Shown: positions 29,646 to 41,769 of the stretch, in pieces
Layout: every line of letters begins with the position of its first letter
Position numbering within the stretch: the first letter of the stretch is position 1
Assembly (NCBI GenBank): GCA_913054475.1
Contig: CAJXJF010000006.1
Location: 1 to 48,858 of the forward strand
Length of the DNA: 48,858 nt
From: an uncultured Nitratifractor sp.
Lineage (GTDB): Bacteria; Campylobacterota; Campylobacteria; Campylobacterales; Sulfurovaceae
Direction: 5' to 3'
Program-made: the position numbers and the translations under genes
Notes under the pieces: model-generated
Databases searched by the model: none
Told to the model about the DNA's origin: nothing
Seen by the model: only the letters and a program-made list of their open reading frames with translations

Positions 29646-32027
29646 ATGTATAGAAACAGTATAATAACAACTATTTTTATAATTCTATTTTCTTTATTTC
29701 TTCATGCGGAAAAACCGACCGAAGAGAGTCTCATTAGACTCTATGTGGCGACTTTCAATAGGGCTCCCGATGCAGCTGGTATAGAGTATTGGCTTTTTGA
29801 TTCGGGCTTGAATTTGCAAGAGATAGCCAAAAGCTTTTTCGAGCAGCCGGAGACAAGAAATATCTATAAAGATCTAAGTGACAAAGAGCAATTTATTCGA
29901 CAAGTTTATCTAAATCTTTTCAATCGTGAACCAGATAGTGCAGGTTTGGAGTATTGGAAAGAGAGACTTCTAAGCGGAGCTATTGAGCCATCTTCATTTA
30001 TCTTGGCACTTATCAATGGAGCGATGGCAAGTAGTGGAGGGGAGAGAGATAGAGATATCCTGAAGAACAAGACAGAGATAGGTTACTATTTTTATAGCTT
30101 GGGCCTGAACGATATAAGCTTGGCCACCAAGGTTATGAAATATATCGATACAGATAGAGAGTCGCTGATTGAAGCGATGGATTATATTGACAGGAATTCT
30201 CCTCAAAGCCTCTTGGTATATCGAAAAGGTTTTCAATATAGTATAAAATCGGATAGTCAAAAAGCTCTGAATTTCAGAGATATAATAGAGAGAGAGGAGG
30301 GCGGTTATATCTTTGTGGGTTCTACATATGACTATTTTGCACATAAAAACGAAGATGCCATAATACTTGAAACCGACAAGAACGGAACTGTAGTAAATAC
30401 TTTTGAACTCAAAGCCGATGGTTTCGATTTTTCAAAAAAAAGATTCATACAGATTGACAAAATTTCAAAAAATCGATACCTCATTTTGGGTGAATTTGAA
30501 AAAAATGCAACGACGATGGCAGATATCACAATTTTTACAGATAATGATAATACACTGTTATCTAAACTCTATACTATAAAAGGCTCCAATCTACAAAATA
30601 TAGACAATTGGCTTAGATTTACGAAAGTTATACCGTTAAGTGATGGTGGTTTTCTTGTATTGGGAGAGCAGGGCGGTAGGGATGATAACGATAGTGTTTC
30701 AGCTCTTGTGGGGCGATTCGATTCCGCTGGCAAAGCGCTTTTTGTCAAACGCTATTTTGCCAAGAAAAATGGATATTTTTTTACAGATGCCCTCGAAAGT
30801 GAAGATGGCATATATTTGACAGGTTATGAGAAAAAGAGCAGTAGTAATTCCAAAATAATATTGAGCAAAATAGATGGAAACGGAAACTTTTTGTGGTTGA
30901 AAAGGTATCTAAGATATCTTTTTGCAGATGATGGCAAAAAAGAGTATTGTGACGGATATGATACGAGAGGTCTTGGAATAGAGAAAATAAAAGATGGCTT
31001 GTTGTTGATTGCTCAAGATATGACATATAGAGATAGGGTAGATAGTTTGATGGGATTCAAAATGGATTATGATGGTGAGCCCTTCTCTGTCGAACGCTAT
31101 TCCTCCTCTTGTCTATCTTCATATTTCAAAGCCACAAAGAGTGATGAATTGGGTTATATCTATATATCCGCAACAGATAGAAGTATCATGAAGATCGATC
31201 AGGGCGGCAATTTTGTATATTCAGCGAAGATAGATACAGCTTGGTTTGACTCCTTTGCTGTCAATAGAGATGGCAGTGTATTACTATGTGGACACAATGG
31301 AGATTTTTCAAATAAAGCTATAGTGCTTGCGAGCAACTCGAATGCTAAGGTATTTGCTTCTACGAATAGCGATATCAAGAGCTCTTTTGAAAAGATCGAT
31401 ACGAATTTAATAAGCATAAAAAATATATCTTTAAATAGTGAAGATTTACAGATTCAGGATAGGGATCTATCAGGTAGTGTAAAGATTGCTATTGATAGTA
31501 GTAGATATGAGCATGAAAGCAGTAAAAATATAGATGGTGATTTCTATTCTGAGTATTCCTATAAAAGTATGAAGTTGACGAAAATTATCGATGGAGATAC
31601 ATATAGATTTGATTTTGATGGTGAAAATATAACATGCAGAGTAAATGGTATAGATACCCCGGAATCGATTGAGAGTTCCAAGCTAAGAAGAATATCCGAG
31701 AAGTGTTCTATCCCGAAAGATATAATTAAAAGAGCCGGTGTAAGAGCAAAGCATTTCGTGGAGCAAAGATTGAGAGTAGGAGAAGAGTATGATGTGGCGA
31801 TCGTGGATAGCGACATCTATTCTAGGAGCGTATGCAAAATCATATATGACGGGGATTTCATAGGCAAGGAGATTGCAAGATATGGTTATGCGGTTGTAAT
31901 GGGGCACTATCTGCTTTCGGATAAGGAAAAAGCCGAATATAGTCATCTACAAGAGAATGCACAAAAGAGAGATTACGGATTGTGGCTTACCGATAAGAAA
32001 CTCATGGAGTGTATAGCATATCCTTAA
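29646..32027 (+). CDS. Secreted DUF4214 / beta-propeller-like / thermonuclease fusion protein
   Basis: 793 residues. A signal peptide (1-21) is followed by two DUF4214-type units (about 25-140) with ATFNRAPDAAGIEYW and LNLFNREPDSAGLEYW, a motif known from S-layer and secreted repeat proteins. Residues about 210-590 form seven or so irregular repeats of a glycine-rich strand pattern (GGYIFVGSTYDYF, GGFLVLGEQGG, GIYLTGYEKKS, GLLLIAQDM, GYIYISATDRS, GSVLLCGHNG), suggesting a beta-propeller. Residues about 642-785 are a staphylococcal-nuclease-like domain with TKIIDGDTYRF, CRVNGIDTPES and YSRSVCKI, so the Arg, Asp, Glu and second Arg catalytic positions seem kept. The gene is markedly AT-richer than its neighbours and sits alone between terminators, as if acquired. 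The role could be extracellular DNA degradation, but the domain set is unusual. Confidence 0.82.
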   Translation: MYRNSIITTIFIILFSLFLHAEKPTEESLIRLYVATFNRAPDAAGIEYWLFDSGLNLQEIAKSFFEQPETRNIYKDLSDKEQFIRQVYLNLFNREPDSAGLEYWKERLLSGAIEPSSFILALINGAMASSGGERDRDILKNKTEIGYYFYSLGLNDISLATKVMKYIDTDRESLIEAMDYIDRNSPQSLLVYRKGFQYSIKSDSQKALNFRDIIEREEGGYIFVGSTYDYFAHKNEDAIILETDKNGTVVNTFELKADGFDFSKKRFIQIDKISKNRYLILGEFEKNATTMADITIFTDNDNTLLSKLYTIKGSNLQNIDNWLRFTKVIPLSDGGFLVLGEQGGRDDNDSVSALVGRFDSAGKALFVKRYFAKKNGYFFTDALESEDGIYLTGYEKKSSSNSKIILSKIDGNGNFLWLKRYLRYLFADDGKKEYCDGYDTRGLGIEKIKDGLLLIAQDMTYRDRVDSLMGFKMDYDGEPFSVERYSSSCLSSYFKATKSDELGYIYISATDRSIMKIDQGGNFVYSAKIDTAWFDSFAVNRDGSVLLCGHNGDFSNKAIVLASNSNAKVFASTNSDIKSSFEKIDTNLISIKNISLNSEDLQIQDRDLSGSVKIAIDSSRYEHESSKNIDGDFYSEYSYKSMKLTKIIDGDTYRFDFDGENITCRVNGIDTPESIESSKLRRISEKCSIPKDIIKRAGVRAKHFVEQRLRVGEEYDVAIVDSDIYSRSVCKIIYDGDFIGKEIARYGYAVVMGHYLLSDKEKAEYSHLQENAQKRDYGLWLTDKKLMECIAYP

Positions 32028-32500: not shown

Positions 32501-33190
32501 ATGCATATAGAAGCGGGTGTCGTCGAGGGCGGCAAAATGGTATTGGCTTATGCTACAGGTGCGGCCACTATGGCTGTAGGGTTCAAAATGGTATGGGAGA
32601 ATGTCGCAAAGTACGGTATCGTCTCCTATCTGCTCAAAGCGCTTCTGGCTACCGCCATAGTATTCAGCTGTTTCGAGATACTGCCCCACTATCCGGTGGG
32701 GGTGAGTGAAGTGCATCTGATACTCGGTACCACGATATACCTCATATTCGGACTGGCGCCGGCGATGACTGGACTGGCTGCGGGACTGCTGATACAGGGG
32801 CTCTTTTTCGCTCCTTCCGACCTTCCCCAATATGGGATAAATGTAACGACACTGCTCGCGAGTATTCTCATACTCCATACAGTGGCCAGAAGAGTCATTC
32901 CCGAGGGTATGGCATACAAGGATATCGGATATAGCCAACTGCTGAAACTCTCCGTGGCGTGGGAGGGGGCCATCGTGAGCTGGGTGGCCTTCTGGGCCCT
33001 CTACGGACAGGGTTTCGGTGCGGAAAATCTCTCCAATATTCTGGCTTTTGGAAGCTCCTATATGTTGGTGGTCATAATAGAGCCTCTTGTCGATCTCGCC
33101 GTACTTGCGGCGGTAAAAACACTCTATCGCGAAGGAGAGTGCAAACTCCTTTTCGAGAGCAGACTTCTGGGCTGTAAGGCGGCGTTTTGA
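32501..33190 (+). CDS. cbiM: CbiM-like cobalt transport permease
   Basis: 229 residues with six or so membrane spans. It begins MHIEAGVV; in CbiM/NikM proteins the N-terminal Met-His pair and following residues bind the metal, and this His2 is kept. HLILGTTIYLIFGLAPAMTGLAAGLLIQGLFF is the family core. It imports cobalt in energy-coupling-factor transporters, normally with CbiN, CbiQ and CbiO, none of which is here. AAAGGA lies before the ATG. It opens a 19-gene operon. Partner proteins may be elsewhere, or it may work alone with low capacity. Confidence 0.85.
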   Translation: MHIEAGVVEGGKMVLAYATGAATMAVGFKMVWENVAKYGIVSYLLKALLATAIVFSCFEILPHYPVGVSEVHLILGTTIYLIFGLAPAMTGLAAGLLIQGLFFAPSDLPQYGINVTTLLASILILHTVARRVIPEGMAYKDIGYSQLLKLSVAWEGAIVSWVAFWALYGQGFGAENLSNILAFGSSYMLVVIIEPLVDLAVLAAVKTLYREGECKLLFESRLLGCKAAF

Positions 33191-34005
33191 AGCGCTACAG
33201 ACACTACGACAAAGGTACGGCGGTCATACTCTCGTGCTTTGGCTCGGTCGTGGAGCAGAAGCTCTACGAAGATTTGAAAAGCGCAATGCAGGAGAGTTTC
33301 GAGGGGGTGGATTTCTTCATCTCCTTCAGCTCGAGAATGGTTCTCAAGGAGCTTGCCGCAAGAGGTATGGAGTATAGGAATCTGCCACAAGTTCTCGCAG
33401 ATACCGACAGGGCCGGCTATAGAAGGGTTGTCGTGGCATCTATCAATCTCTTCCCCACCGACGAACACGAACTGCTCGTAAAGACGGTAGAGGGATTCAG
33501 CCGCTTCAGTCTCTCCCGGATACGGCACACCGGAGCCATATTCGACTCGAGTGCGCAGACTAGCGCTGTGCTGAAAAAGCTCGACGATACGATAGGGCGC
33601 GAGGAGTGCGCGAATCTATATGTCATACACGGGGTGCCTCCTCTGGATTTGAAGGGGCTTGGAGCCGTCGAATATAGCCATGGTCTCCTCGAAGCCCTCT
33701 CGCCCGCGAACTTCTGCTGTTCGCTCGAGGGCGCCTATCCGTGGTCCGCTCTCAAAGATAGATTGATGCACGATATCGCGCAAAGAGGCTACAAAAAGGT
33801 GCAGGTGGTGCCGATGCTTCTTGTCAGCGGCAACCACTATATCAAGGATATGGTGGGAATCAGGGATGAACTCAGCGAACGATTCGAGAGTTTCATCGCA
33901 CCCGCCCTCGGCCAGAGCGGGAGATTCAATCTGCTCGAATTCGAAGATATACCTCGGCTGATACGCAGGAAAATCTTCGAAGAGATAGAGAAATTCGGTT
34001 GCTGA
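33187..34005 (+). CDS. cbiK: Sirohydrochlorin cobaltochelatase CbiK
   Basis: 272 residues, cytoplasmic. It inserts Co2+ into sirohydrochlorin in the anaerobic route. Two histidine motifs fit the CbiK metal site: YVIHGVPP and VPMLLVSGNHYIKDM, with SLEGAYPW as the acidic part. The duplicated class II chelatase fold is evident. The start is TTG at 33187 overlapping the cbiM stop as TTGA. It starts the dedicated pathway from sirohydrochlorin. Confidence 0.88.
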   Translation: MKRYRHYDKGTAVILSCFGSVVEQKLYEDLKSAMQESFEGVDFFISFSSRMVLKELAARGMEYRNLPQVLADTDRAGYRRVVVASINLFPTDEHELLVKTVEGFSRFSLSRIRHTGAIFDSSAQTSAVLKKLDDTIGREECANLYVIHGVPPLDLKGLGAVEYSHGLLEALSPANFCCSLEGAYPWSALKDRLMHDIAQRGYKKVQVVPMLLVSGNHYIKDMVGIRDELSERFESFIAPALGQSGRFNLLEFEDIPRLIRRKIFEEIEKFGC

Positions 34006-34009
34006 GAAG

Positions 34010-34681
34010 ATGCTTTATATGGTTTCTTTGGGGCCGGGAGACCCCTCGCTCGTCACCCTCAAGGCGCTCGATACTCTAAAGGCCGTGGATGCGATATGCA
34101 TACCCACCAAAAGCGGAGACAGGAGTTTCACGAAATCTCTGAGCTACCGCATCGTGGAGGAGTTGGCTTCGAGATACTCTCTGAAAGCCCGGAGAGTACC
34201 GATATACGCTCCGATGAACTATAGGGAAGAGGATTGGAGAGAGCAGGCCAAAGAGATAGCCGACTGTCTGGATAGATATGGCGAAACGGCCTTCGTGACA
34301 CTCGGAGATGCCGCCATATACAGCAGTGTCTACTATCTGCTGGATATCTTCGAGAGGGACTATCCCGAACTCTATGAAAAGTGTGAGGTGATAGCCGGTG
34401 TCACATCCTTTTCTCAGGCATCCGCCAAGGTGAAGAAGCCTCTCTGTCTGGGTGAGAGCGCTCTTAGTATAGAGCCTCTGCCCCTGCGCGAGACGCAACG
34501 AAGCAGAGTCTATATGCGCCCTTGGGTCGGTATGCCTACAGAGAGTATACCGGAGTCGGGAGAGCTCTACCGCTTCGAAAATCTCGACGGAGAGAGAGAA
34601 AAAATTCTCCTAGGCAGAGGTGATGAGATAGATAGCTATATGACCCTCTTTATAGATTTTTGCCGAAAGAGGGAGGAGTGA
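34010..34681 (+). CDS. cbiL: Cobalt-factor II C20-methyltransferase
   Basis: 223 residues. The tetrapyrrole methylase N-terminus MVSLGPGDPSLVTLKALDTL and FVTLGDAAIYSSVYYLLD, then AGVTSFSQASAKVKKPL, match CbiL/CobI. It transfers a methyl from SAM to C20 of cobalt-factor II. GAGAAG precedes the ATG at 34010. Its stop overlaps the cbiC start (TGATG). Confidence 0.92.
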   Translation: MLYMVSLGPGDPSLVTLKALDTLKAVDAICIPTKSGDRSFTKSLSYRIVEELASRYSLKARRVPIYAPMNYREEDWREQAKEIADCLDRYGETAFVTLGDAAIYSSVYYLLDIFERDYPELYEKCEVIAGVTSFSQASAKVKKPLCLGESALSIEPLPLRETQRSRVYMRPWVGMPTESIPESGELYRFENLDGEREKILLGRGDEIDSYMTLFIDFCRKREE

Positions 34682-35391
34682 TGCCGTTTATCAGAATGGA
34701 GCCTCCGGTGAACGAGGCGGCAGATATCTCGAGACTCTCCTTCGAGACGATAGAGAGAGAGCTTCGGGGCTACGAGGAGTGTGCGAGATTCACCTTCCGG
34801 GAGTTGGAGGTCGCCAAGAGGCTGATACATACGACGAGCTGTTTCTCTCAGGTGCTCGAGAGCCTCCATTTCACGGAAAATGCCGTGGAGCGCATTATGA
34901 AGCTTCTTGTCGAAGGGGCTCTCATAGTGACCGATGTGAATATGATAAAGGTGGGGTTGAGCTCCTTCTATCTCCAAAAGTACGGCAACGAAAGCGTATG
35001 TTATGTAAATGAGAGCTTCGCCTACGAAAGAGCCCGAAAAGATGGAGTCACGAGGAGCTATGCGGCCGTATGCGAAGCGGTGAAGAGGCATTCGGATAGA
35101 GCGATGATATTCGCCTGCGGCAACGCGCCAACCTTCATCTATGCCGCGGTGAACACTCTCATCGACGAGGGTATCGACCCTTCGAGCTGTGCCTTCATAC
35201 TCTTTCCGGTAGGTTTCGTGAATGTCGTGGAGTCCAAAGAGTACGGTCTTTCATATGCCGAGGAGTTCTCCTCCGCCGCCATTGCGCTCAAAGGCAGATT
35301 CGGAGGCTCCACCTCTACGGTAGCGGCGCTACACGCCATATACAGGCTCATAGAGGATTTCGATTCGGAGGGAAAGTACAATGGCAGATAG
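34681..35391 (+). CDS. cbiC: Cobalt-precorrin-8 methylmutase
   Basis: 236 residues from the ATG at 34681; the frame is open a further 7 codons upstream within cbiL. It moves the C11 methyl to C12 to give cobyrinate. RLIHTTSCF holds the catalytic histidine, but the family usually has HT.(A/G)DF, so the Asp is a Cys here. IFACGNAPTFIYA and ILFPVGFVNVVESKE match the family core. It overlaps the next gene by 11 bases. Confidence 0.9.
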   Translation: MPFIRMEPPVNEAADISRLSFETIERELRGYEECARFTFRELEVAKRLIHTTSCFSQVLESLHFTENAVERIMKLLVEGALIVTDVNMIKVGLSSFYLQKYGNESVCYVNESFAYERARKDGVTRSYAAVCEAVKRHSDRAMIFACGNAPTFIYAAVNTLIDEGIDPSSCAFILFPVGFVNVVESKEYGLSYAEEFSSAAIALKGRFGGSTSTVAALHAIYRLIEDFDSEGKYNGR

Positions 35392-35833
35392 AGAGCCTCG
35401 GATAAACGAGATGGGCTCCGTCGTGGAGGATGGCTATCGATGCAAACCGCTTGTAGCCGACCCGCAAAAGGCGATGATGTATTACAAGAGCCATATCTTC
35501 ATCTGTTGCGGCGATAGATGTCGCAAAGCCTGGAAGAGAGATGACCTTCCCTCCTATCTGAGGGATATACTCAAAAGTATGAGACTGCACAAAGGGAGCA
35601 GGCGTATAAAGATTTCGACGGGAGGCTGTTTCGGTACCTGCCGTTTCAGGACGGTCGCCAATATATATGAAAACAGCAGAGGCAACGGCTTTTCGGGCAA
35701 CGACAACCTATGGCTCAAAGCGGTCCATCGCTACGACGAATCGAGATGGAGAGAGCTCTTCGAGACTCTCGATAGCGATATCGAGCTTCTGGGCAGAGGC
35801 TTCGAGAGTATCGAAATGAAGGAGTATGACTGA
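35381..35833 (+). CDS. Thioredoxin-fold [2Fe-2S] ferredoxin-like protein in the cobalamin operon
   Basis: 150 residues, cytoplasmic. Cysteines at about 42, 43, 47, 83 and 87 form HIFICCGDRC and STGGCFGTC, the pattern of thioredoxin-like [2Fe-2S] ferredoxins (C-x3-4-C and later C-x3-C). Similar domains are fused to or found next to cobalt chelatases and cobalamin genes in other bacteria. It lies between cbiC and cbiD, overlapping cbiC by 11 bases and touching cbiD. The role is not known. It could give electrons to a reductive step such as the precorrin-6A reduction, whose normal enzyme CbiJ is absent from this operon, or serve cobalt reduction. Confidence 0.75.
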   Translation: MADREPRINEMGSVVEDGYRCKPLVADPQKAMMYYKSHIFICCGDRCRKAWKRDDLPSYLRDILKSMRLHKGSRRIKISTGGCFGTCRFRTVANIYENSRGNGFSGNDNLWLKAVHRYDESRWRELFETLDSDIELLGRGFESIEMKEYD

Positions 35834-36811
35834 TTGTCCCGGCAAAGGAGGGGATTTAGCACGGGTGTGCATGCCTGTTTCGCCATGAGAGGGGCGCTGG
35901 AGGCCTTTTTGCGCACGGGAGAGCCCAGTATGTCCATAAGCAGGAAAATCGCCAACGACGATATCGATGTAACCATAGGTTGCGGGATATTTGCCGAGGT
36001 GGCTTCCGAGAAAGGGCTTTTGAATCTCAACCCGATAGAGCACGAAGCCTACGATTTGGGCCCAGTACTGCTGTATGCCGGCAGAGGGACCGGTGTGGTC
36101 TGCAAAGCCGGCTTGAAAGCCCCGAAGGGCTACGCGGCCGTCAATCCGGTGCCGCTGAAGCATCTCGAAGCCATATGCCGAAGGCTTCTCCCCTCATACG
36201 ATGCGAAGATATACGCATCTATCGGAGTGCTGGAGGGGGAGATGCTCGCTCCCCGTACAGCCAACGAAAAGGTCGGTGTGCTCGGGGGTATCTCCATACT
36301 CGGCACCAGCGGATGGGTCAAGCCGGTATCGAGCATGGCATATCTCGACTCCATAGAGACGGAGCTGTCCGTCATATCCGCCCGCTCGAGAGAGAAGGTG
36401 GTATTGACGATAGGAGAGAGTTCGAAAAAGGAGGCTCTAAAGAGCCACGGCGAAGATATCACGGTCGAGATAGGCAATTTCGTTTTCGATGCCCTCAGGC
36501 GTGTCGAAAACTTCTCTTTCGAGAGGGTGATTCTCTACTGCGGTATAGCCAAGGCGCTGAAGATTGCCCAGGGGTTCGAAAATACCCACAACCGCTACGG
36601 CTTCGCCGACCTCGAAGAGGTCGAATCCCTGTTGCGGGGATGGGGATATACAGCACTGCCGAAGGAGAGTGTGACGCTCAGAGGGATATACGACTCTCTG
36701 CCGAGAGAGTATGCCCGAAGGCTCGAAAGGTATATAGAAGAGAGGGCTGTGCGCAGATTGCGCCGAAATTTCACGACTCTGAATATAGAGCTCGATATAG
36801 TGACTGGATAG
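35834..36811 (+). CDS. cbiD: Cobalt-precorrin-5B C1-methyltransferase
   Basis: 325 residues. RRGFSTGVHACFAMRGALEAF is the family's N-terminal GFTTG-type motif, followed by VTIGCGIFAEVASEKGLLNLNP and VGVLGGISILGTSGWVKPVS. It methylates C1 of the ring with SAM; the fold is not the tetrapyrrole methylase one. The start is TTG at 35834, directly after the stop of the ferredoxin-like gene; any later start would cut the GFSTG motif. Confidence 0.93.
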   Translation: MSRQRRGFSTGVHACFAMRGALEAFLRTGEPSMSISRKIANDDIDVTIGCGIFAEVASEKGLLNLNPIEHEAYDLGPVLLYAGRGTGVVCKAGLKAPKGYAAVNPVPLKHLEAICRRLLPSYDAKIYASIGVLEGEMLAPRTANEKVGVLGGISILGTSGWVKPVSSMAYLDSIETELSVISARSREKVVLTIGESSKKEALKSHGEDITVEIGNFVFDALRRVENFSFERVILYCGIAKALKIAQGFENTHNRYGFADLEEVESLLRGWGYTALPKESVTLRGIYDSLPREYARRLERYIEERAVRRLRRNFTTLNIELDIVTG

Positions 36812-36823
36812 GAAGGGAGAGAT

Positions 36824-37978
36824 ATGCTGACCATAGCCGGCAACGGAATGGGGCCGTACAGTTTCGAGAATCTGAATCTCGATATCGATAGTTTCGACAC
36901 GATTGTATGCGACCCCAACTTCGAAGAGAGTTCCGAGAGGATACTCAAACTCCGATACAGGGAGGCCAAAGAGTATATATTGCGCAACTACGACAAAGAG
37001 GAGATACTCTATGTAGTCACCGGTTCACCCCTCTTCTATTCGGCAGGCACCATCGTGGCCAAGCTTCTGCCCCGAGAGAGTGTCACAATCGTTGACGGGG
37101 AGTCTTCGCTCGGATATCTCTGCCGCAAGCTGGCGATATCCATGGCCGATGTGCAGAGTATCTCTCTGCACGCACGAGAGCGTCCCGACCCATCCCTCCT
37201 GCTGAAACGGAGATATACATTCATACTCTGCGACGCCCACAGCGTACGGAAGATGGCCAAAGCGCTCGAACATCTCAAAAGAGACGATATCTCGGTCACC
37301 ATAGCCTACAAGCTCGGATACGAAGATGAATATATAGGAGAGTTCGACCTCTATGGCCGATGCGAGTTCGATCTCGGCGAGCCGTATGTCCTGCTGATAG
37401 AGAGACTCTTCGGGCGCGAAAGCACAATAGCCGAAGATAGCTCTTTCGTCACGGAGAGAGGGATGATAAGCAAAAAGTACAAAAGAGAGCTCTCGTTGCA
37501 GCATCTCGATCTCGAAGAGGGTATGACCCTGTGGGATATCGGTGCGGGTAGCGGAAGCTGTGCCATATCGGCATATCTGCGCTACGGCGTGGCGACGGTA
37601 CTCTTCGAAAAGAATCCCAGGAGAGCGGCCTATATAGAGGAGAATCTCGCAAGAAAACGGGTGCTATGCAGTGAACTGCTCGTAGGAGACGCCGTAGAGC
37701 ACTGGAGAGAAAGAGTCGAGAGGCCTGAGAGAATCTTCGTGGGCGGAGGGGGTGCAAGGGTGCTTGCCCTCTTGCCCGAGCTCTACGATATCCTCGCCGA
37801 TAGCGGGATAATGCTCGTGGCGGCGGTGACTCTCGATAGTCTCGTCGCCGCCATCTCCTCGCTCGAGGAGTCCGCCATAGAGTACGAAGCCATCTCCCTC
37901 TCTTTCACGAGATACAGCGGAAAACTGATGATGGCCGAACCTCAACGGGAGATATTCTGGATAAAGGTGAGAAAATGA
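36824..37978 (+). CDS. cbiET: Fused CbiE-CbiT precorrin-6Y methyltransferase
   Basis: 384 residues. The N-terminal half (about 1-190) is a tetrapyrrole methylase (IAGNGMGPYSFENL, VVTGSPLFYSAGTIVAK), CbiE. The C-terminal half (about 195-384) is a class I SAM methyltransferase with LWDIGAGSGSCAISA and GDAVEHW, then RIFVGGGGA, CbiT. The fusion (like CobL) methylates C5 and C15 and decarboxylates C12. GGAAGGGAGAG precedes the ATG at 36824. Its stop overlaps cbiF as ATGA. Confidence 0.93.
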   Translation: MLTIAGNGMGPYSFENLNLDIDSFDTIVCDPNFEESSERILKLRYREAKEYILRNYDKEEILYVVTGSPLFYSAGTIVAKLLPRESVTIVDGESSLGYLCRKLAISMADVQSISLHARERPDPSLLLKRRYTFILCDAHSVRKMAKALEHLKRDDISVTIAYKLGYEDEYIGEFDLYGRCEFDLGEPYVLLIERLFGRESTIAEDSSFVTERGMISKKYKRELSLQHLDLEEGMTLWDIGAGSGSCAISAYLRYGVATVLFEKNPRRAAYIEENLARKRVLCSELLVGDAVEHWRERVERPERIFVGGGGARVLALLPELYDILADSGIMLVAAVTLDSLVAAISSLEESAIEYEAISLSFTRYSGKLMMAEPQREIFWIKVRK

Positions 37979-38694
37979 TCTATTTCGTAGGGGCAGGTCC
38001 GGGAGATATCGAACTCCTGACGCTCAAAGCCGTCAGAGTGCTCGAAAAGGCCGATGCCGTACTCTATACGGGCTCTCTCGTACCGGCCGAAATTCTGCAA
38101 TATTGCCGTGAAGATGCGCATATAGAGGATTCGAGAGATATGGACTATGCCGAGATATTCTCCTTTCTCGAAAAGTACTCCCAGAAGCTCACCGTAAGGC
38201 TCCATACCGGCGACCCCTCACTCTACTCGACGATAGCCAAGCAGATAGAGTTTCTCGAAAGCAGAGGAATCGAATATACCGTCATACCCGGAGTCAGCGC
38301 GGCTTTCGCGGCGGCGGCTTCTCTCGGGCTGGAATATACGCTTCCGGGTATCTCCCAGACTCTCGTCATAAGCCGTGTGGAGGGGCGTACGCCCAATCCA
38401 GAGAGACTCGAGACGATACTTGCCTGCAAAAACTCTTCGAAGGTCTTCTATCTCTCGATAAAGCTGATAGAGAGTCTCGTAGCCGAAGCGTTGCGTGCGG
38501 GTTACGCCCCCGATACTCCCTGCTGGGTCGTGGAGAAGGCATCGTGGAGGGAGGAGAGAGTCTATAGAGGTACCCTCGAGGATATAGCGCCAAAGGTATC
38601 GCACATAGGCGGAGTGGCGTTGATTCTCCTCGGAGATTTCCTGCATCGAAAGAGTACGCAGAGCTCCTATCTCTACGGAGGCGGGGAGAGTTGA
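37975..38694 (+). CDS. cbiF: Cobalt-precorrin-4 C11-methyltransferase
   Basis: 239 residues. FVGAGPGDIELLTLKAVRVL, YTGSLVP, LHTGDPSLYSTI and YTVIPGVSAAFAAAASLGLEYTLP match CbiF/CobM. It places the C11 methyl. It starts in the cbiET stop (ATGA). Confidence 0.95.
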   Translation: MIYFVGAGPGDIELLTLKAVRVLEKADAVLYTGSLVPAEILQYCREDAHIEDSRDMDYAEIFSFLEKYSQKLTVRLHTGDPSLYSTIAKQIEFLESRGIEYTVIPGVSAAFAAAASLGLEYTLPGISQTLVISRVEGRTPNPERLETILACKNSSKVFYLSIKLIESLVAEALRAGYAPDTPCWVVEKASWREERVYRGTLEDIAPKVSHIGGVALILLGDFLHRKSTQSSYLYGGGES

Positions 38695-39704
38695 AGAGGA
38701 TAGCCATAGTCTCCATCAACGAGACAGGACTTGGAAGCGCTTTCAGGCTGGCGGATATTCTGTATGAGTACGACTGTGTCGTATTCGGCAAAAGGGGAGT
38801 ATGCAGCGACGATAGCGGCGCCCGCCTTTTCGACTCTCTGGCCGTAGAGTTGCGCAAAATCTATGTACAGTTCGATGCCATCGTATCTTTCGTGGCTACA
38901 GGGGCGCTGATACGCATCCTGGCTCCTCTGCTCGAAGACAAGGCGACGGACCCGGCGGTGCTGGCTGTGAGTTTCGATCTCAAAAGAGTCGTTCCTCTCA
39001 TAGGGGGGCATCTCTCCGGGGCCAACCGGCTGGCCGCCGTAATAGAGGAGAGAGTCCCCGATGCCATCTCCTTCGTGACCACGGCATCGGAGCAGCTGGG
39101 CAGACTCTCTATCGACCTGCTCGCCGCCGAGAGGGGATGGCGCATAGAGAAGCTCTCCTCTCTGGCGAGGGTGGCGAATATGCTCGTAGATGCACGGCAA
39201 GTCGCCCTCTACTGCAGTGACGCCATCTTCCACTCTCTGAGCGAATATGACTCCTTTTCGAGGGTCGAGAGGGCGGAAGATGCCGATCTGATCGTAGCGG
39301 TGGCGGGAGATTACAAAGAGAAGGCCGTTTTGAGACCTCCCCTGAGTATTGGCATCGGCTGTATGAGGGGAAGCTCCGCGGAGTCGATAGAGAGAGCGGT
39401 GGAGGAGTTTCTGCGCAGACACGATATCGATCGCAGAGAGTTGAAAACGGTGGCGAGTTATAGCGCCAAAGAGGATGAGAGGGGGCTTTTGGAGTTCATA
39501 GAGAGCTATGGAGTCGAAGCGAGGTTTTTCGATGCTGCCCAGATAGAGGGTGTCGGGGGGAGCTTTTCGCCCTCGGCCGCCGGCAAACACTTCTCCATCA
39601 AAGGGGTGGCGGAACCTTCGGCACTGCTGGCGTCGGAATATGGGGAGCTACTCTTCCCCAAAGAGGTATTTTACTCAACTATAACGATAGCGGGAGCGAT
39701 ATGA
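38691..39704 (+). CDS. cbiG: Cobalt-precorrin 5A hydrolase
   Basis: 337 residues. DAIVSFVATGALIRILAPLLEDKATDPAVLAV and VPLIGGHLSGANRLAAVI are diagnostic of the CbiG middle and N-terminal regions; a C-terminal CobE-like part follows (IGIGCMRGSSAESIERAVEEFL, FSPSAAGKHFSIKGVAEPSALLAS). It opens the delta-lactone and releases acetaldehyde. The start is TTG overlapping cbiF as TTGA. Confidence 0.93.
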   Translation: MKRIAIVSINETGLGSAFRLADILYEYDCVVFGKRGVCSDDSGARLFDSLAVELRKIYVQFDAIVSFVATGALIRILAPLLEDKATDPAVLAVSFDLKRVVPLIGGHLSGANRLAAVIEERVPDAISFVTTASEQLGRLSIDLLAAERGWRIEKLSSLARVANMLVDARQVALYCSDAIFHSLSEYDSFSRVERAEDADLIVAVAGDYKEKAVLRPPLSIGIGCMRGSSAESIERAVEEFLRRHDIDRRELKTVASYSAKEDERGLLEFIESYGVEARFFDAAQIEGVGGSFSPSAAGKHFSIKGVAEPSALLASEYGELLFPKEVFYSTITIAGAI

Positions 39705-40492
39705 TGAACAGACTATATATAATCAGTAGCGGTGCGGGCGGAGAGAGCTATATAAGCGCCGAAGCGAGAGAGGCCCTGAGGGAGTGCGAGGTGGTCGTCT
39801 CCTATGTCAAGTATGCCAAAGAGCTCAAAGAGCTTCTCGAAGGCAAAGAGGTGATAACCTCGGGAATGACCAAAGAGATTCAGAGGTGCAAAGAGGCTAT
39901 AGATAGTGCCCTGAGCGGAAAGACTACGGCAATCATATCCAACGGAGATGTGAATGTTTACGGTATGGCCACACTGATTGTGGAGATGGTGGATGAAGAG
40001 AATCTCTGGGAGAGACTCGAAGTGCGCTCCCTCCCGGGAGTGACGGCACTTCTGGCTGTAGCGAGCAAGGCGGGCGCTCCTTTGAGCCAGGATTTCGCGG
40101 TCGTCTCCCTCTCCGACAGACTGACCGATATCGAAGTGATACGAAGACGCGTCGAGGCTGCGCTGGAGGGAGATTTCGTACTCGGTATATACAACCCCAA
40201 ATCGAGGAGCAGAGTCAAACCCTACGAAATGTTCCTCGAGAGGCTGGCAAACTATCCCGACCGTCCGGTGGTGGTGGCTTCGAATGTGGGCAGGGAGAGA
40301 GAAAAGATAGTCTATACCAGCAGTCACAAACTCGTCGAGGCCGGAGTCGAAAATCCCGATATGGGTATGTCCACACTTCTACTCGTAGGCAATTCGAACA
40401 GCAGATTCACGAAAAACGGGAAGGTGCTCACCCCCAGAGGCTATTTCGACAAATACGACTCCGCCGGTGAACTGAAGGGGAGTAGAGAGTGA
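39701..40492 (+). CDS. cbiH: Cobalt-precorrin-3 C17-methyltransferase
   Basis: 263 residues. ISNGDVNVYGMATLIVEM, VRSLPGVTALLAVASKAGAPL and DFAVVSLSDRL match CbiH/CobJ, and GIYNPKSRSRVKPY follows. The N-terminus (YIISSGAGGESYISAEAREAL) differs from the usual GIGPG-x-x motif. It methylates C17 with ring contraction. ATGATG offers two starts at 39701 and 39704; the first overlaps the cbiG stop. It is clear as a tetrapyrrole methylase of this type. Confidence 0.92.
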   Translation: MMNRLYIISSGAGGESYISAEAREALRECEVVVSYVKYAKELKELLEGKEVITSGMTKEIQRCKEAIDSALSGKTTAIISNGDVNVYGMATLIVEMVDEENLWERLEVRSLPGVTALLAVASKAGAPLSQDFAVVSLSDRLTDIEVIRRRVEAALEGDFVLGIYNPKSRSRVKPYEMFLERLANYPDRPVVVASNVGREREKIVYTSSHKLVEAGVENPDMGMSTLLLVGNSNSRFTKNGKVLTPRGYFDKYDSAGELKGSRE

Positions 40493-41769
40493 AGCTCCCC
40501 TCCCTCTGTATAGCCTCCTGCTCATCCGGCAGAGGCAAGACCGTACTATCGAGCGCTCTTATGTACCGCTTCAGGGATATCGTACGAGCATTCAAGATTG
40601 GGCCGGACTTCATAGACCCCCGTTTCCATGCCAGACTCTGCGGCAGAGCGTCGGTCAATCTCGACAGCTTTATAATGAACGAAGAGCAGTTGAAGCGACT
40701 CTTCGTAGATAATAGCGCGAAGCTGAATCTGATAGAGGGGGCCATGGGTTTCTACGACGGAGAGGATAGAGGCTGTAGTACACACAGCGTCACGGCCGCC
40801 CTCCGTGTACCTGTCGTTCTGCTCATGGACGCTTCGGGGAGCTACATCACCCTTTCGGCACTGCTCAAGGGTATGAGAGAGTATAGAAGAGGCAATATGA
40901 TAAAGGCGGTGGTGCTCAATCGCGTCTCGTCGGCCAGCCACTACGAGAGGATAGCTTCCATCCTGGCCAGAGAGCATCCGGATATAGAGCTTCTGGGCTG
41001 GATAGGACGAGAGCTCCCCTCTCTGCACTCCACCCATCTCGGACTCGACATGGGGGATATCTCTCTGATGCAGAGCATAGCCTCCCAGGTACTCGAGCAT
41101 ATAGATATGGATGCCCTGCTGAGTATAGCCAAGAGTGCCCAAATAGCCGAGCCCGAAACGCAAAACCCCTTCCCTGCGCACGATATTGGCGGTAAAAAAG
41201 CGGTTTTGGTCCATGACGAAAACTTCTCTTTTCTCTATCACGACAACTATCTCTTCCTCAAGGAGTCTTTCGGGGAGGTGCAGATAGTCAGTGCCGTGAA
41301 AGATGAGGAGATAGACCCCCGCAGCGACCTGGTACTGCTCTGCGGCGGTTATGTGGAGAGTGAGGAGGCCTATGCGCGCATAGCGGGCTCGAAGCGTTTC
41401 GCGGACTCTCTGAGGAGCTATCTGCAGGGAGGGGGACGGGTATATGCGGAGTGTGCGGGGCTGCTCTATCTCTCCGAGAGGGTGGACGACAAGAGGATGA
41501 GCGGCATACTCCCGCTCGCCTTTCATATGGAAAAACGCTTCCAAAGACTTGGTTACTACTACGACGAGAGCGGAACGAAGGGGCACGCTTTCCACTATAC
41601 CCGCCCCGACGAAGCGAGCCTCTGCAAAGCCTGCGGCAGACTTTCGAAAGAGCCGCGGGGAGAGGGGAGCGGCGGTGTGTGGTGCGCTTACGAAGGCAGG
41701 CTCAGGGCCACCTATCTGCATACGATGTTCAGAGCCTATCCCGATATTCTGTCGATGGAGAGACGATGA
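40489..41769 (+). CDS. cbiA: Cobyrinate a,c-diamide synthase
   Basis: 426 residues. The N-terminal P-loop-like ASCSSGRGKTVLSSAL and FKIGPDFIDPRFH (ATP and cobyrinate site) are followed by LIEGAMGFYDG. The C-terminal glutaminase shows the Cys nucleophile in YAECAGLLYLSE and His in YLHTMFRAYP. It amidates the a and c carboxylates with glutamine and ATP. The start is GTG overlapping cbiH as GTGA. Confidence 0.94.
   Translation: MKLPSLCIASCSSGRGKTVLSSALMYRFRDIVRAFKIGPDFIDPRFHARLCGRASVNLDSFIMNEEQLKRLFVDNSAKLNLIEGAMGFYDGEDRGCSTHSVTAALRVPVVLLMDASGSYITLSALLKGMREYRRGNMIKAVVLNRVSSASHYERIASILAREHPDIELLGWIGRELPSLHSTHLGLDMGDISLMQSIASQVLEHIDMDALLSIAKSAQIAEPETQNPFPAHDIGGKKAVLVHDENFSFLYHDNYLFLKESFGEVQIVSAVKDEEIDPRSDLVLLCGGYVESEEAYARIAGSKRFADSLRSYLQGGGRVYAECAGLLYLSERVDDKRMSGILPLAFHMEKRFQRLGYYYDESGTKGHAFHYTRPDEASLCKACGRLSKEPRGEGSGGVWCAYEGRLRATYLHTMFRAYPDILSMERR

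What the first reader, a model, noticed from the sequence alone, without database searches (positions are those of the whole stretch)
35381..35833. [2Fe-2S] thioredoxin-fold protein in an operon that lacks cbiJ
All ring-building steps from cobalt-factor II on are encoded except the precorrin-6A reductase CbiJ. A small protein with CCGDRC and GGCFGTC cysteine motifs is locked between cbiC and cbiD by overlapping and abutting frames. It may supply electrons for the missing reduction, or be part of a new reductase with another protein, or serve the reduction of cobalt. Its link to cobalamin in other bacteria is known only by context.
Basis: partly seen in the sequence, partly recalled or inferred. 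Interest (0 to 1): 0.7.

Follow-up and report, generated by a model that had tools for sequence, protein, structure and literature searches.

The report
Iron-sulfur protein in CbiJ-less B12 operons
Bacteria that build vitamin B12 without the usual reductase CbiJ carry, in the same operon, a small iron-sulfur protein that probably supplies the electrons for that step, which gives a testable candidate for a gap long noted in B12 synthesis.

Summary
A 150-residue protein ("FdX", 35381-35833) lies between cbiC and cbiD, overlapping the first by 11 bases and abutting the second. Its modelled fold is a thioredoxin-like [2Fe-2S] ferredoxin. The nearly complete genome has no CbiJ.

FdX is a conserved family in Campylobacterota. 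In 100 genomes of its family, FdX and CbiD occur in the same 18, and CbiJ in none. In a phylum sample, 12 cobalamin genomes have FdX without CbiJ, 4 have CbiJ without FdX, and none has both. Of 50 genomes picked only for FdX, none has CbiJ and 48 have CbiD. FdX is the only unassigned gene common to these operons.

Its nearest relatives outside the phylum sit in CbiJ-less operons of Betaproteobacteria, Methylomonas and Manganitrophus. Thermus, Leptospira and haloarchaea instead carry a related domain fused to CbiX.

Best reading: FdX is the electron donor, perhaps the catalyst, for reducing cobalt-precorrin-6A. This is inferred from context; no biochemistry exists. The cbiD tree shows only about two independent associations, so whole-operon inheritance is a real confounder.

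The parts
35381..35833 (+). FdX: thioredoxin-like [2Fe-2S] protein, 150 aa, proposed electron donor or reductase for cobalt-precorrin-6A
   Evidence: translation; 57-member alignment; AF2 pLDDT 92; fold matches
35441..35443 (+). codon of invariant Cys21 in the N-terminal CKP motif, outside the ferredoxin fold
   Evidence: invariant in 57 sequences
35504..35521 (+). C42-X4-C47, first pair of predicted cluster ligands, with invariant Arg46
35627..35641 (+). C83-X3-C87, second pair of predicted cluster ligands, followed by invariant Arg88 and Arg90
35367..35372 (+). Shine-Dalgarno-like GGAGGG, 8 bases before the FdX start
   Evidence: sequence
35819..35824 (+). Shine-Dalgarno-like AAGGAG for cbiD, inside the end of FdX
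   Evidence: sequence
32501..33190 (+). cbiM-like cobalt uptake component
   Evidence: PF01891 1.5e-16
33187..34005 (+). cbiK cobaltochelatase
   Evidence: PF06180 1.6e-18
34010..34681 (+). cbiL
   Evidence: TIGR01467 2.4e-34
34660..35391 (+). cbiC
   Evidence: PF02570 6.9e-46
35834..36811 (+). cbiD (makes cobalt-precorrin-6A, the substrate of the missing step)
   Evidence: PF01888 5.1e-52; TIGR00312 5e-58
36824..37978 (+). cbiE-cbiT fusion (acts after the missing step)
   Evidence: TIGR02467 and TIGR02469
37975..38694 (+). cbiF
   Evidence: TIGR01465 3.1e-71
38691..39704 (+). cbiG
   Evidence: PF01890, PF11760, PF11761
39701..40492 (+). cbiH
   Evidence: TIGR01466 1.6e-70
40489..41769 (+). 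cbiA
   Evidence: PF07685 2.2e-20

Best explanation
FdX is a dedicated thioredoxin-fold [2Fe-2S] protein of the cobalt-early cobalamin pathway in organisms without CbiJ. Most likely it takes electrons from a housekeeping NAD(P)H:ferredoxin or flavodoxin reductase and delivers them one at a time to cobalt-precorrin-6A made by CbiD. This reduces the C18=C19 bond to give cobalt-precorrin-6B, the substrate of CbiT. Shown here: fold (as a model), cysteine pattern, position in the operon, absence of CbiJ, co-occurrence with CbiD, exclusion of CbiJ. Inferred: that a [2Fe-2S] cluster is bound, that the acceptor is cobalt-precorrin-6A, and that FdX contacts the substrate itself through its invariant basic residues and N-terminal extension rather than passing electrons to another enzyme.
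For: Genome without CbiJ. In 100 genomes of the family FdX and CbiD occur in the same 18 and CbiJ in 0. In two of them (G008, G018) FdX and cbiD lie on different contigs, so the link is not only adjacency. Phylum sample of 298: with CbiD and a real pathway, 12 FdX+/CbiJ-, 4 CbiJ+/FdX-, none with both (the lone CbiD of G300 has no CbiC either). Of 50 genomes picked for FdX alone, CbiJ over cut-off 0, CbiD 48. No other unassigned gene is universal in about 60 loci. Of 72,556 plasmids the only two hits of FdX are in cbi operons with CbiD and without CbiJ. Relatives in Methylomonas, Manganitrophus, Vitreoscilla and Acidovorax are the same. CbiX-fused [2Fe-2S] domains occur in CbiJ-less Thermus, Leptospira and Halobaculum, and eight CbiJ+ operons examined lack any. 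The Leptospira operon also has an NAD(P)H-flavin reductase-like gene next to cbiD. Fold: VIA Z 11.4 to 10.4 with [2Fe-2S] ferredoxins. Basic protein, median pI 8.8, invariant Arg or Lys beside the cluster cysteines.
Against: On the CbiD tree the Fd label needs only two changes, so the exclusion rests on about two independent operon lineages. The CbiJ+ Campylobacterota took a whole Ilyobacter-like operon, not just cbiJ. A [2Fe-2S] protein alone is a one-electron carrier and CbiJ does a hydride transfer. The CbiX fusions could point to the chelation step. Thiodictyon has CbiD with neither gene in its plasmid operon. No partner flavoprotein is encoded in the window operon.
Confidence: 0.52

Rival explanations
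1. FdX serves another redox need of the pathway, such as reducing Co(III) or Co(II) during ring synthesis or before adenosylation, and the cobalt-precorrin-6A reduction is done by an unrecognised enzyme encoded outside the operon.
For: The protein looks like an electron carrier. Flavin proteins have been suggested to keep cobalt reduced in the Sulfurospirillum corrinoid cluster (PMC4585668). Fusion of the related domain to CbiX in Thermus, Leptospira and haloarchaea does not single out the reduction step.
Against: CbiJ+ cobalamin producers need the same cobalt reductions yet lack the protein, in Campylobacterota and in eight other operons. No other unassigned gene is universal in the loci.
Confidence: 0.25
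2. FdX is one subunit of a two-part reductase (a sub-version of the best explanation): it passes electrons to a catalytic partner, possibly another Cbi enzyme with a second role or a flavoprotein encoded elsewhere, which binds the substrate.
For: NuoE-type domains usually work with a flavoprotein (fold matches). The Leptospira operon has an FAD-dependent reductase between DUF3209 and cbiD.
Against: No extra conserved partner gene in the Campylobacterota or Betaproteobacteria operons.
Confidence: 0.25
3. The FdX/CbiJ exclusion is only inheritance of two whole-operon types, and FdX has an accessory role (Fe-S sensor, chaperone or chelatase helper) unrelated to the missing reduction.
For: The CbiD tree needs only two changes of the label. 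The CbiJ+ Campylobacterota operon groups with Ilyobacter.
Against: Two Fd-bearing operon lineages, with the domain free in some and fused to CbiX in others, both lack CbiJ, and the step still has to be filled.
Confidence: 0.15

Closest known systems
Thioredoxin-like [2Fe-2S] ferredoxins (Aquifex Fd 1f37, Azotobacter FeSI 5abr, NuoE/HydC and HydB N-terminal domains)
   Same: Predicted fold (Z 10.4 to 11.4 over 90-99 residues) and C-X4-C ... C-X3-C pattern
   Different: Extra N-terminal part (residues 1-33) with invariant Cys21, invariant basic residues at the cluster, C-terminal part with invariant W111 and near-invariant H116 and W123; scores below the PF01257 cut-off
CbiJ/CobK precorrin-6A reductase (PF02571, EC 1.3.1.106 and 1.3.1.54)
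   Same: Proposed to fill the same step; the two were never found in the same operon or genome of those examined for both
   Different: Unrelated sequence and fold; no Rossmann domains, no NAD(P)H site
[2Fe-2S] 'NAD(P)H-dependent oxidoreductase subunit E' in betaproteobacterial cbi operons (e.g. WP_151123349.1, Ideonella)
   Same: Sequence relation (profile-profile probability 98.4%), same operon context with CbiD and no CbiJ, shared R-C and R-[IV]-K motifs
   Different: No N-terminal extension, placed after cbiH, 33-42% identical over the matched stretch; no assigned function either
CbiX with C-terminal [2Fe-2S] domain (Thermus, Leptospira, haloarchaea)
   Same: [2Fe-2S] thioredoxin-like domain in a CbiJ-less cobalamin cluster
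   Different: Fused to the chelatase, separate branch in the Fd tree
Ferredoxin-dependent bilin reductases (mechanistic precedent, from my own knowledge)
   Same: Reduction of a tetrapyrrole by single electrons from a [2Fe-2S] ferredoxin
   Different: There a separate catalytic protein binds the tetrapyrrole; no sequence relation was tested

Membership tests
Thioredoxin-like [2Fe-2S] ferredoxin fold | Thioredoxin-like ferredoxin fold | tested here: met
   AF2 pLDDT 92; VIA Z 11.1 to 5abr_A (92 aligned, rmsd 2.1) and 10.7 to 1f37_A (94 aligned, rmsd 2.3)
Thioredoxin-like [2Fe-2S] ferredoxin fold | Four cysteine ligands, C-X4-C and C-X3-C | tested here: met
   Present in 57 of 57 homologues with 34-36 residues between the pairs
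Thioredoxin-like [2Fe-2S] ferredoxin fold | Bound [2Fe-2S] cluster | not testable with these tools
   Needs spectroscopy
Pfam PF01257 (2Fe-2S_thioredx) sequence family | Match at the curated cut-off | tested here: not met
   No PF01257 match for P0001 even at E 1; the Ideonella and Methylibium relatives do pass it
CbiJ/CobK precorrin-6A reductase | PF02571 or TIGR00715 match | tested here: not met
   No match
CbiJ/CobK precorrin-6A reductase | Two Rossmann-type domains binding NAD(P)H and substrate | tested here: not met
   Model is a single thioredoxin-like domain; CobK fold from PMC4663756 abstract
CbiJ/CobK precorrin-6A reductase | Reduction of (cobalt-)precorrin-6A | not testable with these tools
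   Needs substrate and purified protein
NuoE/HydC-type subunit of an NADH dehydrogenase or hydrogenase | Encoded with a NuoF-type flavoprotein | tested here: not met
   Window neighbours are all cobalamin genes; in the related loci the neighbours recognised are cbi genes
DUF1636 (PF07845) | PF07845 match | tested here: not met
   No match at E 1
[2Fe-2S] proteins of CbiJ-less cbi operons (group proposed here) | In a cobalamin gene set with CbiD and without CbiJ | tested here: met
[2Fe-2S] proteins of CbiJ-less cbi operons (group proposed here) | Closer to each other than to other [2Fe-2S] ferredoxins | tested here: inconclusive
   HMM scores 30-40 bits against at most 22 for others; tree support 93/81, under the 95 mark, with a long FdX branch; CbiX-fused domains fall outside

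The most novel reading that the evidence does not exclude
FdX is itself the cobalt-precorrin-6A reductase: a small iron-sulfur enzyme that binds the tetrapyrrole with its basic residues and N-terminal extension and reduces it by single electrons. It would be an unrelated, non-hydride replacement of CbiJ, with a second version evolved as a domain of CbiX in Thermus, Leptospira and haloarchaea.
Probability: 0.3. Interest if true: 0.8.

Novelty: new variant of a known kind. Interest (0 to 1): 0.63.

Why it matters
CbiJ is repeatedly reported missing from otherwise near-complete cobalt-early cobalamin pathways: haloarchaea (PMC8305020, PMC6719526), Thaumarchaeota (PMC4303638), and Geobacter, Desulfovibrio and Desulfotalea (PMC545781). 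Those papers either leave a gap or call the gene non-essential. A single protein family that appears in its place names a candidate gene, makes the gap testable with existing reconstitution methods, and would help surveys that now score such organisms as having an incomplete B12 pathway. Whether the candidate applies to all of those groups was not tested here.

Tried and rejected
Standard cbiJ elsewhere in the genome: searched with two models, absent. Another unassigned gene as the reductase: clustering of all unlabelled ORFs near FdX gave a BluB-like flavoprotein (29 loci), a cysteine-rich protein (10) and unrelated genes, none universal. The apparent exception G300 (CbiD, neither FdX nor CbiJ): its cbiD is cut by a contig end and the genome has no CbiC, so the pathway is not there as a whole. 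Its A3 hit, and the second hit in the window genome, are an unlinked ferredoxin beside a panD-like gene. G160 hit: six stops inside, spurious. Relatives near CobN, siderophore or transport genes in Azospirillum, Paracoccus, Rhodococcus and Halotia are not in cbi operons and score lower. Strong statistical claims: rejected after the CbiD tree showed the label changes only twice; the naive 1 in 1820 for the 12/4 split ignores relatedness. Literature: no paper found that proposes a [2Fe-2S] protein for this step, but most subscription papers are not held.

Full report
What is there. The frame 35381-35833 (+) encodes 150 residues with CCGDRC and GGCFGTC. It overlaps the end of cbiC by 11 bases, abuts cbiD, and has its own Shine-Dalgarno-like site, while the site for cbiD lies inside its last codons. 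HMM searches confirm the neighbours as cbiM, K, L, C, D, ET, F, G, H and then cbiA, a kinase of the APH fold, an archaeal-type cobT, cobU, cobD, cbiP, cbiB, cobS, cobC. Corrin-ring synthesis from cobalt insertion onward is therefore covered except for CbiJ. I call the protein FdX.

CbiJ really is missing. PF02571 and TIGR00715 find nothing in the window's genome (99.94% complete, 0.05% contaminated), while named control genomes ring.

The family. FdX has no Pfam or NCBIfam match above cut-off. Fifty-seven non-redundant homologues share 25 invariant columns. Among them are four cysteines in a C-X4-C, 34-36 residues, C-X3-C pattern, a fifth cysteine in an N-terminal CKP motif, and basic residues K22, R46, R61, R75, K77, R88, R90. 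The protein is basic (median pI 8.8; window protein 8.7). A scan of 84,980 species genomes with two conserved peptides found 66 loci, all labelled as Campylobacterota or genera of that phylum. Relatives lacking those peptides would be missed.

Fold. AlphaFold2 with the 57-row alignment gives pLDDT 92. Foldseek's best matches are [2Fe-2S] thioredoxin-like proteins. VIA-align gives Z 11.4 to the HydB N-terminal domain, 11.1 to Azotobacter FeSI and 10.7 to Aquifex ferredoxin, covering residues 34-150. Residues 1-33, which hold Cys21, are outside that match.

Distribution inside the phylum. In 100 genomes of the same family FdX is in 18, CbiD in the same 18 and CbiJ in none. In G008 and G018 FdX and cbiD are on different contigs and still occur together. 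In 298 genomes of the phylum that are at least 90% complete, CbiD is in 17. Twelve have FdX and no CbiJ, four have CbiJ and no FdX, and one, G300, has neither. G300 also lacks CbiC and its cbiD is cut by a contig end, so it is not a working pathway as assembled. Genus g33 contains both types (G347 with FdX; G154, G297, G321 and G333 with CbiJ). Of 50 genomes chosen only because they carry FdX, none has CbiJ above its cut-off and 48 have CbiD.

Gene order. In about 60 loci FdX usually follows cbiC and precedes cbiD, cbiET, cbiF, cbiG, cbiH. No other unassigned gene is shared by all. Insertions between FdX and cbiD occur (L071, L038).

Outside the phylum. A tblastn of FdX against 72,556 plasmids gave two hits below E 0.01. 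Both are [2Fe-2S] proteins inside cbi operons of Burkholderiales that have cbiD and no cbiJ. With one of them as query, the next relatives lie in Vitreoscilla, Sphaerotilus, Acidovorax, Methylomonas and Candidatus Manganitrophus. The operons read are those of Vitreoscilla, Acidovorax, Methylomonas and Manganitrophus; none has CbiJ annotated, and an HMM check agrees for the latter two. Weaker hits are the C-terminal domain of CbiX in Thermus, Leptospira and haloarchaea, again in clusters without CbiJ. Conversely, the operons of Ilyobacter, Peptoclostridium, Calditerrivibrio, Deinococcus, Trichlorobacter, Listeria, Rhizobium and Azospirillum have CbiJ or CobK and no such domain. Thiodictyon has neither in its plasmid operon. 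The regions were partly chosen by searching for one gene or the other, so this list is a check of exclusion and not a random sample.

Relation between the groups. The FdX profile scores the six operon ferredoxins at 30-40 bits and all other ferredoxins tested at 22 or less. The profile-profile comparison, in which the second alignment mixes operon and CbiX-fused domains, gives 98.4% probability, E 5e-15. In a tree FdX and the operon ferredoxins join with support 93/81, which is moderate, and the CbiX-fused domains fall elsewhere.

A check that weakens the case. On a tree of CbiD the Fd label needs only two changes, and the CbiJ-bearing Campylobacterota group with Ilyobacter. They appear to have replaced the whole operon; a similar cluster in Ilyobacter was noted before (PMC4585668). 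The exclusion is therefore about two independent events, not sixteen.

Mechanism. Known from the literature: CbiD makes cobalt-precorrin-6A, CbiJ reduces it with NADH, CbiT uses the product (PMC7242693). Without CbiJ another electron source is required. FdX is the only unassigned, universally conserved gene of the operon, it has an electron-carrier fold, and it is absent where CbiJ is present. I therefore think it delivers electrons to cobalt-precorrin-6A. The Leptospira operon adds a flavin-dependent NAD(P)H reductase-like gene next to cbiD (PMC4758666 lists a flavodoxin reductase LB_163 and a ferredoxin-related LB_165 there), which suggests the chain NAD(P)H, flavin, [2Fe-2S], substrate. The density of invariant residues, many of them basic and next to the cluster cysteines, fits direct contact with a polycarboxylate tetrapyrrole, but this is inference.

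How the confidences relate. The best explanation (0.52) covers both the case in which FdX is the catalyst (novel case, 0.3) and the case in which it feeds a catalytic partner (second rival, 0.25); the last two are sub-versions of it and their figures overlap with it.

Known or new. The missing CbiJ is recorded in several groups: haloarchaea (PMC8305020; PMC6719526; PMC3403918), Thaumarchaeota (PMC4303638) and delta-proteobacteria (PMC545781). I found no paper that names a [2Fe-2S] protein as the replacement, within an open-access library only. The thing works like an electron donor or reductase for the CbiJ step. It is not a member of the CbiJ family, and it is a distant member by fold of the thioredoxin-like ferredoxins.

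Noticed in passing
L071:10489-15818: A block between FdX and cbiD in one Sulfurimonas MAG: by eye a C5-cytosine-methyltransferase-like protein, an 861-residue GHKL-ATPase-like protein, a response-regulator-like protein and a metallophosphatase-like protein; looks like a mobile or defence insertion into the B12 operon.
   Followed up: no
L089:2565-3251 and L071:15126-15818: A similar metallophosphatase-like gene lies directly before cbiD in two different genomes.
   Followed up: no
window 29646-32027; L038:1778-2788: A DUF4214-like protein with a nuclease-like C-terminus lies upstream of the operon in the window; a DUF4214-like protein is inserted between FdX and cbiD in the nearest relative (assignment by eye, not by HMM).
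   Followed up: no
L080:9757-9978 (also L060, L064, L078, L098; in frame with FdX in L029): A small protein of about 73 residues precedes FdX in several operons and appears joined to FdX in one.
   Followed up: no
L157:1420-1797 (G000:C15:16522); L158:1423-1806: A second, ordinary-looking [2Fe-2S] ferredoxin next to a panD-like gene, unlinked to the B12 operon; function unknown to me.
   Followed up: partly
window 1-48858: No cobalamin riboswitch or other Rfam hit apart from one tRNA (1318-1389, -), so the operon's control is not explained.
   Followed up: partly
L142:14683-15432: Leptospira B12 operon has an FAD/NAD(P)H reductase-like gene between a DUF3209 gene and cbiD, a candidate partner for the [2Fe-2S] domain.
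   Followed up: partly
window 35618-35620: The window's FdX has Thr80 where 96% of relatives have Arg, and also departs at positions 14, 24 and 86; it is one of the more divergent members.
   Followed up: no
L091:4043-4471 and nine other loci: A cysteine-rich small protein next to the kinase gene in ten Campylobacterota B12 loci, perhaps like the eight-cysteine proteins reported beside the Sulfurospirillum cluster.
   Followed up: no
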